Assembly: GCF_038003085.1 (NCBI RefSeq)
Contig: NZ_JBBOOM010000004.1
Location: 1-64,000, forward strand
Reading direction: 5' to 3'
Origin: Psychrobacillus sp. FSL K6-2836
GTDB lineage: Bacteria > Bacillota > Bacilli > Bacillales_A > Planococcaceae
DNA: 64,000 nucleotides
Of this stretch, positions 34,501 through 50,741 are shown piece by piece. The position numbers and the translations under genes were made by a program. The notes under the pieces are model-generated. The model was not told the origin of the DNA and searched no databases. It was given only the letters and a program-made list of their open reading frames with translations. Positions within the stretch are counted from its first letter, which is position 1. Each line of letters opens with the position of its first letter.

Positions 34501-34758
34501 TTAGAAAGACTCTCCCAAACCTATACTAGATTAAAAGAATTCGAGAAAACGATTTATTGGGCAGAAAAACTATTAATATACGATTCTACCTGGGAGGAAG
34601 CTTACCGCCTATTAATGTTTGCCTATTATCAGCTTCAAAACAGAAGCCAATCCGTTAAATGGTATGATCGCTGCGTGCATGTACTGGAGAAGGAGCTAAA
34701 TATAGAACCAATGCCTACAACCATTCAGATGTATGAAATGATTACTGGTTATGAATGA
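31549..34758 (+). CDS. Large ATP-binding regulator with TPRs and SARP/BTAD DNA-binding end
   Basis: 1069 residues. Residues 1-330 form a MalT-like STAND ATPase: LLHSGAGYGKSSAL (Walker A, about 41) and LSIVVDDFHLVDH (Walker B, about 130). A long helical-repeat region (about 350-800) follows. From about 820, VRLLGPFTLYMG begins an OmpR-type winged helix with ELFAYLYLQSHRYVPKEELIQMLWG, and the last 130 residues form a bacterial transcriptional activator domain ending EKELNIEPMPTT. Such proteins are ligand- and ATP-controlled activators. It lies directly upstream of the Liv/acyl-CoA operon, whose promoter has SARP-like direct repeats, so it probably activates that operon. Ligand unknown. Confidence 0.88.
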   Translation: MDQPTIILSKLSAPVPSSTYMRRSSLLKKLKANTHKKLTLLHSGAGYGKSSALAQYFADSRGLYSWYSITEEDDGILPFLRHLIRSIQKTVPTFGRGFKDKDLISVYPKEAELQQLYSLFSNELSNIDESLSIVVDDFHLVDHVFHINYIMEKIIEFLPPNIHVVVSTRLKPKWSILLKLKLSGQLVEITESDLMFTEEEILVFFEDYFDKRISIDDASEIMRLTEGWAIAIQLIAMQVAETNRQISHLVNPALNDLFSYLLEEVFLLLSTEDQQSLLNFSIFPLFTANDIQDFFNDEEAKSMVRLASSHAFIQPLGDSNTFRFHSLFQQFLETKSKQKDIHAFYETHRKAANYFQVKGNIVQAVHHAVKANDESFLAELLTIFAPKMIKGGQFDWLLDLLGDHLSKAIRDHFYELYYYEGECHRYRAFYEKARLSYEAALEKAFQKENILYISRANAGLAHIYLDTIQPALAQPFLKEAIEWAEKGKDISSLEKVFLQRLMAENLVNVGKANDAKTWIEKEKLDPAILTEGNLDARILLRTGRLIEAQQLLESRTRDEDSLPDSHRETDVLLSFIYSLSGKVERAKVSANKGIETGIREKSGFVEAVGLIRLGHSELLTNPFDLETPEVYYLKAIQKMDDLNVARAKAEPYMGLSILKSRQGFFREAIDYGEKGLRETKKVNDYWLSAYILLGLGIVYLENGEYIEAVEHIRQSNELFTNCEDVYGEVISHYWLMRIYNEFNDEASFSEHAKCFMELCGMHNYFFFLQNRTVFGPIDLQTNYPILQKVYTIHHDNKYVGQIIDKLNISTKTNYPGYTLYVRLLGPFTLYMGTDEVNDRKWQRDKSKELFAYLYLQSHRYVPKEELIQMLWGESDTKKLDRDFKVTLNSLLKVLEPNRQAREESYFILRKQSMYRLNPNAYVGSDVLDFNHFAQNGIEEISPHLSKELLLKAVHLYRGELFEDRITIEWISSERAKAQQLFIQVLERLSQTYTRLKEFEKTIYWAEKLLIYDSTWEEAYRLLMFAYYQLQNRSQSVKWYDRCVHVLEKELNIEPMPTTIQMYEMITGYE

Positions 34759-34825
34759 AAGCAGAGAGTTTTTTTGCTTTTTAAAAGATAAAAAAGTATT
34801 TAAAAATGTCCTGTAATACTGGGTT

Positions 34826-35055
34826 CAAGATGCAATATAGAATAAATAATCCTACTGATTTCCGTTTCAGATGGAGACAAAGGAACAAAGGCTAAGAACG
34901 CCACCTCGTGTGGCAACGCCTTCGTGACCAACATCTTGTTGGCCTCCGCAGGGTGAGCGATGAACATCACCGACGCTTGCGCGTTCGCCTGTGATGTTTC
35001 ATCTGTCTCACTGATCCTGCCGGAGTCGCCACCTTTCCCTACAATCAATCAGTTT
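34826..35055. repeat. Modular GC-rich dispersed repeat, copy A
   Basis: On the minus strand it begins near GGTGGCGACTCCGGCAGGAT, runs CAGTGAGACAGATGAAACATC, a GATGTTCATCGCTCACCC module, CCAACAAGATGTTGG, GGCGTTGCCACACGAGGTGG and ends CTGAAACGGAAATCAG. Related pieces occur at 48583-48760 and 55752-55875, and the CCAACA/TGTTGG and GCC-TCGTG-GGC hairpins recur at 50380-50430. GC content is well above that of flanking genes. Confidence 0.7.
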
Positions 35056-35299
35056 GTAGTACTCCACGATAAGTTTTACTCTAACTTATCGCTTAGATGA
35101 TAGGATTTGTCAAATTTTAGAGAGTGATCAAATTATTTGTAAACGCCTTCAAATTAGAAATGCGATTTTCCAATGAGCGAGGAAGTAAGCAGTAAGTGTT
35201 CTTCCAATAAAGAAGCGAAATAGCGAACGAAATTGCATCTTCGAGAGCTTATTCTCTAAATTAGAAAGGATCTTTTCTCTAGTTGTCCAATAACGCATT

Positions 35300-35471
35300 A
35301 ACCTGTTTCTAAGAGTTGTAAGAGGGCGACGGACAGACAAACGCCATAAGATTACCGAGAAAAGAGATGCAGGTTGTGACGTCAGTCACGACCTGCATCT
35401 CAAAAAAATCAAACGGTAATAATATAGCAAAATGTCTGTCCAAAGCCCTTTGAAAACGATAGAAACAGGTT
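35300..35471 (+). repeat. Nested-stem dispersed element, full copy 1
   Basis: Five stems are nested in order: AACCTGTTTCTA (35300) with TAGAAACAGGTT (35460), GGGC with GCCC, GGACAGAC (35331) with GTCTGTCC (35434), ATTACCG (35351) with CGGTAAT (35414), and a 17-bp apical helix GAGATGCAGGTTGTGAC (35364) with its complement (35385) around GTCA. No coding capacity. The second full copy at 49063 keeps the architecture with compensating changes. Confidence 0.75.
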
Positions 35472-35516
35472 TTGACTTTAAAGGACCTGGCATGTCTTTT
35501 GCCTGGTTTTTCTTAT

Positions 35517-35585
35517 TTTGCTCCTGCGCAAGCTCGTCGCAAATAAAGCAAAAACCTTTGCTCCTGCGTACAGCTCGTCGCAAAA
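35517..35585 (+). repeat. Short direct duplication
   Basis: TTTGCTCCTGCG followed by AGCTCGTCGCAAA occurs twice, at 35518 and 35557, differing by one or two bases and separated by about 14 bases. It lies between the dispersed element and the operon terminator; no role is evident. Confidence 0.65.
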
Positions 35586-35617
35586 CCCATTTACTCTGCT
35601 GAGTAAATGGGTTTTGT
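35582..35617 (+). terminator. Terminator-like hairpin before the Liv operon
   Basis: AAAACCCATTTACTC pairs perfectly with GAGTAAATGGGTTTT around TGCT, followed by GTAAC and TTTT. It would isolate the operon from upstream transcription. Confidence 0.75.
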
Positions 35618-48568: not shown

Positions 48569-48582
48569 TTTAGTTTAAGGTG

Positions 48583-48760
48583 GACGCTTTCTGTGGGCAC
48601 AGCTTCAATCTCCTCGGTCCAAAAGGATGTTGGTCACGAAGATGTTGCGATCGTTTGTGGCGCTTTTAGCCTTTGTTCCTTGTAAATGTTCTTGTAGGGC
48701 TTTCAGCTATTTCCTCTGGAGTCGCCGCCTTAGACTTCAATCATTAAAGAGAGTTGTACT
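48583..48760 (+). repeat. Modular GC-rich dispersed repeat, copy B
   Basis: CAAAAGGATGTTGGTCACGA and GTGGCGCTTTTAGCCTTTGTTCCTT match the minus strand of copy A at 34826 (AAGATGTTGGTCACGAAGG, GTGGCGTTCTTAGCCTTTGTTCC), and TCTGGAGTCGCCGCC matches its inverted other end. The piece looks rearranged. The rest up to 49040 is A+T-rich and carries nothing I recognise. Confidence 0.6.
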
Positions 48761-49062
48761 CAATTATAAGATTTTACAAAGCTTTTTGTTGTTATAAAAA
48801 AAATTGTAAAAGTTAAAGTAGTATAAACCATTCCGTCTATGCTGTTGAATTAGGGGAGCGATTTTTTAGTATTTCTGCTCAAATTTCGCGCATTATTATT
48901 GGATGAAGTATTGAAAATCTAGATTTACTTTATGTAGTGGAAATACAGAGAAGTAGTTATTGTTTACCAAATAAGGAGGGAAGGGGGCAACCGAAATTAC
49001 TTCTTCGGGCGCAAATATATGAGTAGGAAAGAATCACTTCTCTAATTATCCAAAAACGCACT

Positions 49063-49232
49063 AACCTATTTCCAAAAGGTGTAGGAGGGCGACGCTTAGG
49101 TAAATGCAGCAAGATTACCGAGAAAAGAGAGGGGGATCGTGAACATTAGTCACGACCACCCTCTCTAAAAAATCAAGCGGTAATTTTATAGCTTTAAGTC
49201 TGTTGGAAGTCTACCGAAAAGAATAGAAATAG
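49063..49232 (+). repeat. Nested-stem dispersed element, full copy 2
   Basis: It has the same order of stems as the copy at 35300: CTATTTC (49066) with GAAATAG (49226), CTTA with TAAG, ATTACCG (49114) with CGGTAAT (49178), and an apical helix AGAGAGGGGGATCGTGA with TCACGACCACCCTCTCT. The invariant parts are AACGCA-TAACCT, GAGGGCGAC and ATTACCGAGAAAAGAGA; stem arms differ from copy 1 but remain paired. Confidence 0.75.
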
Positions 49233-49252
49233 TTTTTTGCTTTAAATGACAC

Positions 49253-49546
49253 TTACGCTTTTTTATATGCATAAGATAATTCGTCTCTAGTGGAATCCAG
49301 TTCTACGTACAGATCATGTCCATCAAAATACCATTCATCTGTTTCTTCTATAAAAAATAGGATATCGTCTTTTTTATAGGTCACAGTAGGCTCAAAGGGT
49401 GTGTCCTTTGTAACTCCTAAGGAAAAGCCTTCATGTAGAGGGCTCGACCCGCCATAACGGGCAAAAAAACGAATTGTATCACCTTTTACTGCTTCCATTT
49501 CCTTATGAAACCAATTCAATGCATCGGATGAAATAATTATTTTCAT
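49253..49546 (-). CDS. yneR: HesB/IscA-like protein, YneR type
   Basis: 97 residues of the HesB-like fold: MKIIISSDALNWFHKEMEAVKGDTIRFFARYGGSSPLHEGFSLGV, then DEWYFDGHDLYVELD. The YGGSSP and DxWYFDGHDL segments match B. subtilis YneR (about 95 residues). The three cysteines used by IscA for iron-sulfur assembly are absent, so a carrier role is doubtful. ATG at 49546 is chosen by length and a GGTGGT site; a further ATG lies 12 bases upstream. It is next to plsY as in B. subtilis. Confidence 0.82.
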   Translation of the reverse strand: MKIIISSDALNWFHKEMEAVKGDTIRFFARYGGSSPLHEGFSLGVTKDTPFEPTVTYKKDDILFFIEETDEWYFDGHDLYVELDSTRDELSYAYKKA

Positions 49547-50308: not shown

Positions 50309-50741
50309 GATAAAGTGAAACTTCAATGAGTGGGCATTCTCTTCATCCCACTCATTGAAAAATGAACTCAGGCAAATTACGCCGCATCGTGCGGCAAAGC
50401 CTGAGTGTCCAACATTCTGTTGGCTCGAACAAGTCGGGCTTATAGTGGCAGTTAACTCCCACTAATGCTTTGTCACTTGGGTCAAGCCTTGAAGTAGGAG
50501 CATACTGCCCGTTAATGCGGGGTAAAAGAACGAAACATACATAAAACCAAATAAATTAGTATTATTAGGTTATAATCATTGGTAGCCGAACTAATCTCAG
50601 TTTAAGAGGCTGTAAATTCCCGTTTGGTGGTCAACAGGATGTTAATCACCCAAGAGTTGCCGCACGATGCGGCATTAGGGTCTGAGTTCAATTTCTTTAT
50701 AAATAGGGGATGTAGAGCCCCACTGGAAGTTTCACTTTATC
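50309..50741. repeat. Head-to-head pair of dispersed elements with inverted ends
   Basis: GATAAAGTGAAACTTC at 50309 and its exact inverse at 50726 bound the element. The left unit (50309-50526) carries TGAGTGGG..CCCACTCA and GCCGCATCGTGCGGC hairpins, CAAGCCTTGAAGTAGG and a GTTAATGCGGGGTAAA end like the copy at 13725. The right unit, read inverted from 50741, repeats CATCCCC, TTGAACTCAG, GCCGCATCGTGCGGC and CATCCTGTTG in diverged form. No coding capacity. Confidence 0.75.

What the first reader, a model, noticed from the sequence alone, without database searches (positions are those of the whole stretch)
35300..35471. Dispersed element of nested stems whose arms covary between copies
This copy and that at 49063-49232 share order and conserved single-stranded blocks (GAGGGCGAC, ATTACCGAGAAAAGAGA, AATCAA-CGGTAAT) but differ in stem arms while staying paired. 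The outer stem is CTGTTTC/GAAACAG here and CTATTTC/GAAATAG there; the middle stem GGACAGAC/GTCTGTCC is replaced by CTTA/TAAG; the 17-bp apical helix is almost wholly different yet complementary in both. That is covariation, as expected of a selected RNA (or of a hairpin-transposing DNA element), not of a dead repeat. I know of no named family with this outline.
Basis: partly seen in the sequence, partly recalled or inferred. Interest (0 to 1): 0.78.

Follow-up and report, generated by a model that had tools for sequence, protein, structure and literature searches.

The report
Mobile hairpin repeat that targets terminators
A long hairpin sequence repeated at least 100 times in a Psychrobacillus genome is part of a non-coding mobile DNA element that inserts just behind gene terminators, and its two arms stay complementary while their sequence changes, which points to a selected or self-correcting DNA hairpin more than to an ordinary RNA gene.

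Summary
The 174-nt hairpin at 35300-35473 folds at z = -14.7 and is one of about 109 copies in this Psychrobacillus genome. It occurs in all 19 genomes of the genus and in 17 genomes of two related genera. The arms covary, most strongly in the apical helix. Two details are wrong: the 'single-stranded' blocks are largely paired, and the middle stem of the 49063 copy has decayed; it was not replaced.
The hairpin is a cassette in a larger non-coding mobile element (34783-35515). Empty sites in a sister species show insertion directly 3' of intrinsic terminators, without a target duplication. Copies point away from the replication origin (100/107). The right end is itself a terminator, so copies can insert behind one another.
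Coreless relatives share both ends, so the hairpin is not needed for mobility. In one related genus the same cassette sits in a different carrier, with terminal inverted repeats and 9-bp duplications.
Folding energy favours neither strand, and wobble pairs are only modestly commoner than A-C mismatches, so a classical RNA gene is not well supported. A HUH-type (RAYT) transposase acting in trans is my best but unproven guess. New variant of a known kind (bcr1/PATE/MITE-like structured repeats).

The parts
34758..34782 (+). Intrinsic terminator (hairpin plus T-run) of the upstream MalT/LuxR-like gene; the insertion site
   Evidence: Directly read; the alignment to three sister species ends exactly at 34782; weak hairpin by RNAfold, -6.2 kcal/mol
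34783..35515 (+). Whole mobile element, 733 bp, absent from the orthologous site in every other genome examined
   Evidence: Intergenic gap in G007, G004 and G006; no core match at this site in 15 orthologous loci
34783..34835 (+). Left end: AAAAGATAAAAAAGTATTTAAAAATGTCCTGT..., with the family's left-end motif and a weak subterminal hairpin
   Evidence: Motif shared by dozens of copies, most of them just behind a terminator
34876..34942 (+). Bacillaceae-1 RNA (RF01690) module inside the element
   Evidence: cmscan 70.9 bits
35212..35251 (+). Leader hairpin with the loop CGAAATTGCATCTTCG, conserved in three genera
   Evidence: Cross-genus alignment
35300..35473 (+). Core nested hairpin: P1 35300-35311/35460-35471, P1b 35315-35317/35455-35457, P2 35321-35327/35445-35451, P3 35331-35339/35433-35441, P4 35343-35348/35423-35428, P5 35351-35357/35414-35420, P6 apical 35364-35380/35385-35401
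   Evidence: Fold z = -14.7; pair counts
35485..35515 (+). Right end: terminator-like hairpin ACCTGGCA..TGCCTGGT plus TTTTTCTTA
   Evidence: Constant right boundary in most copies with both ends
48578..49270 (+). Second, decayed element copy; approximate bounds, left end eroded, right end degenerate
   Evidence: Sequence and alignment
49063..49237 (+). Core hairpin of the second copy; middle helices broken
   Evidence: 155.9 bits to model R1; fold z = -3.9

Best explanation
The feature is a long imperfect palindrome carried as a cassette (leader hairpin plus 174-nt nested hairpin) inside a non-coding, non-autonomous mobile element. SHOWN for Psychrobacillus: the element has a constant left end and a constant terminator-like right end, inserts immediately 3' of intrinsic terminators on the same strand, leaves no recognisable target duplication at the clean sites, and points away from the replication origin. 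Its right end is itself a terminator, so it can serve as a target for further insertions, and tandem copies exist. Elements with the same ends but another interior exist, so the hairpin is not required for mobility. INFERRED: mobility is by single-strand DNA cleavage and joining on the lagging-strand template, supplied in trans, the best candidate being the RAYT-like Y1 (HUH) transposase found once or a few times per genome. INFERRED: complementarity of the arms is kept at DNA level, through selection on an extruded or single-stranded hairpin and/or template-switch correction of one arm by the other, which gives Watson-Crick double changes in one step.
For: About 109 copies. Empty sites: L178, L250 and L252 clean, L169 and L025 near-clean, plus the window copy. 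No duplication of 8 bp or more in 17 end-defined entries, some of them the same site twice; the 7-bp hits are A/T runs. A terminator precedes the left end in 18/24 own copies against 1/58 control windows, 19/27 left-end loci (partly the same copies) and 8/8 loci of other species. Tandem insertion behind another copy's right end: L013/L270, L249. Orientation 100/107 by replichore with dnaA at 2.199 Mb, in the region of the strand switch; 26/26 and 17/17 of the listed hits in G007 and G015 fit a single strand switch. Coreless elements with the same ends (L261, L260, L268, and related L271, L273, L277). Y1 transposase in 18/19 genomes. Both strands fold equally well; GU 13 vs AC 18 in apical arms of related genera; longer variants gain 4 bp in both arms.
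Against: No convincing element ends flank the RAYT gene, and its NCBIfam score (50.6) is below the curated cut-off of 80. G002 lacks it but has only weak copies, so co-occurrence is not decisive. The left-end hairpin varies between copies. Wobble pairs exceed A-C mismatches 285 to 130 within the genus, more than the 1.2:1 substitution asymmetry would give, which leaves room for selection on one strand as RNA or ssDNA. The leader loop and internal-loop motifs are conserved across three genera, more than a passive palindrome needs. Genes also tend to point away from the origin and insertion follows their terminators, so the strand bias is not purely a replication effect.
Confidence: 0.62

Rival explanations
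1. A selected structured RNA: the leader hairpin and nested hairpin are transcribed by read-through or their own promoter, end at the element's terminator, and act as a small RNA or as a mobility cofactor.
For: Significant covariation; leader loop and internal-loop motifs conserved across three genera; right end is a terminator; GU exceeds AC within the genus (285 vs 130).
Against: No strand preference in folding energy; GU does not exceed AC in apical arms of related genera (13 vs 18); outer helices P1-P3 only 72-79% Watson-Crick; no Rfam match; no expression data.
Confidence: 0.2
2. A retro-type element: an RNA ending in the terminator U-run is reverse-transcribed into the T-run behind other terminators, as group IIC introns target terminators.
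For: Same target class as group IIC introns (PMC4424553); constant 3' end; no target duplication; strand bias.
Against: Internal-deletion copies keep the left end (L009, L169, L250), unlike 5' truncation; no group II intron match; no RT at E<=1e-6 in 4 of 19 genomes, including G016 which holds strong copies.
Confidence: 0.1
3. An ordinary DDE-transposase MITE with terminal inverted repeats.
For: In related genus g3 the same hairpin cassette does sit in such elements, with TIR CACGTCTGTTGATTAACC and perfect 9-bp duplications in 8 of 12.
Against: Psychrobacillus elements show no comparable TIR (at most TAAGAAA, read by eye) and no target duplication, and target terminators.
Confidence: 0.05

Closest known systems
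bcr1 and other BCR repeats of the Bacillus cereus group
   Same: Taxon-restricted, up to about 130 copies, 100-400 bp, structured, mobile features, no own transposase described (PMC6542083; PMC2267715)
   Different: BCR mobility is linked to a TTTAT motif; this element inserts behind terminators and has other ends. Sequences were not compared, since no bcr sequence was on hand.
PATEs / IS200-IS605 non-autonomous elements (HUH Y1)
   Same: No terminal inverted repeats, no target duplication, fixed orientation, lagging-strand preference, 3'-of-target insertion (PMC7290912, PMC6006769)
   Different: No autonomous IS with the same ends was found; the target is hairpin plus T-run, not a tetra- or pentanucleotide; the left-end hairpin is poorly kept.
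REP / BIME / REPIN with RAYT
   Same: High-copy intergenic palindromes with a RAYT-like gene in nearly every genome
   Different: Far larger; no GTAG-type foot identified; the RAYT gene is not flanked by the element.
Group IIC introns
   Same: Insert at intrinsic terminators (PMC4424553)
   Different: No ribozyme match, no encoded reverse transcriptase; both ends kept in deletion derivatives.
Bacillaceae-1 RNA (RF01690)
   Same: Multi-copy; found inside several copies of this element
   Different: A separate module; does not match the hairpin core.

Membership tests
IS200/IS605-type non-autonomous element (PATE) | No target-site duplication | tested here: met
   Clean empty sites L178, L250, L252 and 17 end-defined entries
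IS200/IS605-type non-autonomous element (PATE) | No terminal inverted repeats | tested here: met
   Ends compared by eye; only TAAGAAA is shared, at different offsets
IS200/IS605-type non-autonomous element (PATE) | Subterminal hairpins at both ends | tested here: inconclusive
   Right-end hairpin clear; left-end hairpin good in some copies and poor in others
IS200/IS605-type non-autonomous element (PATE) | Ends match an autonomous element encoding Y1 TnpA | tested here: not met
   Y1 genes in the genus are RAYT-like and their flanks carry no element ends
IS200/IS605-type non-autonomous element (PATE) | Orientation bias towards the lagging-strand template | tested here: met
   100/107, dnaA at 2.199 Mb
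REP/REPIN with RAYT | REPs flank the RAYT gene | tested here: not met
REP/REPIN with RAYT | Full-score REP-associated tyrosine transposase in the genome | tested here: inconclusive
   NF047646 at 50.6 bits, cut-off 80; Pfam Y1_Tnp above cut-off
Selected structured RNA family | Compensatory base-pair changes beyond shuffles | tested here: met
   76 double-change cells, 0/500 shuffles
Selected structured RNA family | Strand-specific pairing (wobble favoured over A-C, better fold on one strand) | tested here: inconclusive
   Equal MFE; GU/AC 285/130 in the genus, 13/18 in the second set
Selected structured RNA family | Expression as a discrete transcript | not testable with these tools
   No RNA-seq available
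Rfam family | Match at gathering score | tested here: not met
bcr repeats | Sequence match to bcr1-bcr18 and TTTAT motif at ends | not tested
   No bcr sequence on hand; the original paper is not held
Group IIC intron | Group II ribozyme domains | tested here: not met
   No group II intron match in cmscan

The most novel reading that the evidence does not exclude
A conserved roughly 270-nt hairpin cassette (leader loop CGAAATTGCATCTTCG plus nested hairpin with a GTGAC-NNN-GTCAC-type cap and freely exchangeable but always complementary apical arms) has spread through three genera by riding in at least two mechanistically different non-autonomous carriers: a terminator-targeting, duplication-free element in Psychrobacillus and a TIR/9-bp-duplication MITE in a sister genus. 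It does something for carriers or hosts as a folded nucleic acid.
Probability: 0.35. Interest if true: 0.75.

Novelty: new variant of a known kind. Interest (0 to 1): 0.52.

Why it matters
A non-coding DNA element that inserts behind intrinsic terminators, and brings its own terminator so that each insertion is again a target, occupies a low-damage niche best known from group IIC introns; my literature search, limited to open-access papers, found no DNA element described this way. The same hairpin cassette in two carrier types across three genera gives a natural experiment: is arm complementarity kept by selection on RNA, by selection on DNA hairpins, or by palindrome self-correction? The finding also warns that covariation in high-copy repeats does not prove an RNA gene, and that Bacillaceae-1 'RNA' can travel inside a mobile element.

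Tried and rejected
Rfam family: none matches. Plasmid or phage element: no match. Flanks of the Y1 transposase genes as the source of the element: only chance-level matches, plus one unrelated left-end copy about 1 kb away. Middle stem of copy 2 as compensation: rejected, the arm has drifted. The first alignment used unflipped minus-strand loci and was redone. The first automated empty-site script found nothing because its end coordinates were too strict; one search replaced it. My first view that the core is genus-restricted was wrong. My first reading that wobble and A-C mismatches are equal counted isolated mismatches only; consensus-pair counts show a modest GU excess.

Full report
CHECK OF THE OBSERVATION. 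The window belongs to a Psychrobacillus-like genome: named loci with an exact 23-base core match are all Psychrobacillus. The copy at 35300-35473 folds into one nested hairpin at -87.9 kcal/mol against -31.1 for shuffles, z = -14.7. The 49063 copy folds much less well, z = -3.9. A covariance model of 31 copies gives about 109 non-redundant places in the genome. All 19 genus genomes carry the core, as do 17 genomes of two other genera, g3 and g11, among the 261 family genomes searched. On 31 copies the structure has 90.1% paired cells, 18 pairs with double changes and 76 double-change cells; no shuffle of 500 reaches the number of double-change cells, and slid controls fall far below. The signal sits mostly in the apical helix.

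THE REAL UNIT. Homology extends far beyond the hairpin. In the window the unit runs from 34783, directly after a terminator, to 35515. Sister species G007, G004 and G006 align up to 34782 and again from about 35519-35613, with only short unrelated DNA between, and none of 15 orthologous urtA loci carries the core. Clean empty sites in G007 exist for L178, L250 and L252, and near-clean ones for L169 and L025. For example, L250 has GTCTTTTTTTTGTAGAAAAATCC in G007 where the query genome carries the insert between the T-run and TAGAAAAATCC.

ENDS AND TARGET. The left end is close to AAAAGATAAGAAAGTATATAAAAATGTCCCGTGAACACTGG and the right end is a terminator-like hairpin followed by TTTTTCTTA. A terminator by a strict fold criterion precedes the left end in 18 of 24 copies against 1 of 58 control windows, in 19 of 27 loci found by the left end alone, which partly overlap the first set, and in 8 of 8 loci from other species. 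Several of the remaining sites have an evident hairpin that the criterion missed. In L013/L270 and L249 the left flank is the right end of another copy. No duplication of 8 bp or more is seen in 17 end-defined entries, some of which describe the same site twice.

ORIENTATION. 100 of 107 copies on the main contig obey a two-replichore rule. dnaA lies at 2.199 Mb, in the region where the strand switches, so copies point away from the origin and the element strand equals the lagging-strand template. The listed hits of G007 (26) and G015 (17) each fit a single strand switch. Because insertion follows terminators of genes that themselves tend to point away from the origin, part of this bias may be indirect.

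THE HAIRPIN AS CASSETTE. Loci L261, L260 and L268 carry the left and right ends but a second Bacillaceae-1-type module in place of the hairpin; L271, L273 and L277 share that interior. The hairpin is therefore not needed for movement. In genus g3 the hairpin and leader sit in 360-800 bp elements, often as an inverted pair, with terminal inverted repeats CACGTCTGTTGATTAACC and perfect 9-bp duplications in 8 of 12. The leader loop CGAAATTGCATCTTCG and motifs such as GCGACGGA, GATTACC and TCCAAAGC are shared by most copies of all three genera. The apical arms differ between genera but stay complementary.

RNA OR DNA. If + strand RNA were selected, that strand should fold better and tolerate G-U far more than A-C. 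The two strands fold equally in 90 Psychrobacillus copies (p = 0.55) and in 33 further copies, mostly g3 and g11 plus three from Psychrobacillus G002 (p = 0.39). Apical arms of 27 of these have 13 GU and 18 AC cells against 496 Watson-Crick. Within the genus, pairs that are Watson-Crick in the consensus show 285 GU against 130 AC, more than the 1.2:1 substitution asymmetry of the same columns predicts; some of the excess is inherited at a few pairs. The test is therefore mixed: DNA-level maintenance is favoured and an RNA role is not excluded. Simultaneous 4-bp gains in both arms fit template-switch copying of one arm from the other.

MOBILITY ENZYME. Absence of duplication, absence of TIRs, polarity and terminal structure resemble HUH Y1 elements (PMC7290912, PMC6006769). 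The Y1 genes of the genus are RAYT-like, with a main ortholog in 18 of 19 genomes that is syntenic in the four genomes I read. The link to the element is inference: flanks do not match and the NCBIfam score is below cut-off. A reverse transcriptase is absent at E<=1e-6 from 4 of 19 genomes, and deletion copies keep the left end, which argues against a retro mechanism.

VERDICT. A new variant of a known kind: structured, high-copy, non-autonomous repeats comparable to bcr repeats, with an unusual terminator target and a hairpin cassette shared by two carrier types.

Noticed in passing
window 34876-34942: Bacillaceae-1 RNA (RF01690) lies inside the mobile element as one of its modules, which suggests that at least some Rfam members are parts of transposable repeats.
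   Followed up: partly
L007, L010, L013, L015, just upstream of the core: An antisense Bacillaceae-1 match occupies the same internal position in four copies, suggesting a nested insertion that spread with the element.
   Followed up: partly
L004 and L022, between left end and core: Both copies share an IS3-like insertion at the same junction, so either the composite was copied or the site is a hot spot.
   Followed up: no
L303, L295, L309, L293 (genus g3): Divergent pairs of two hairpin subfamilies form TIR-type MITEs of about 700-800 bp; perfect 9-bp target duplications flank several g3 elements. The transposase was not identified.
   Followed up: partly
L163 (own genome C1:1067439-1068038): Single-copy RAYT-like Y1 transposase between a response-regulator gene and a glutamine-amidotransferase-like gene, syntenic in other species of the genus.
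   Followed up: partly
window 50357-50423 and 50631-50696: Two further Bacillaceae-1 matches in opposite orientation in the plsY-parE intergenic region.
   Followed up: no
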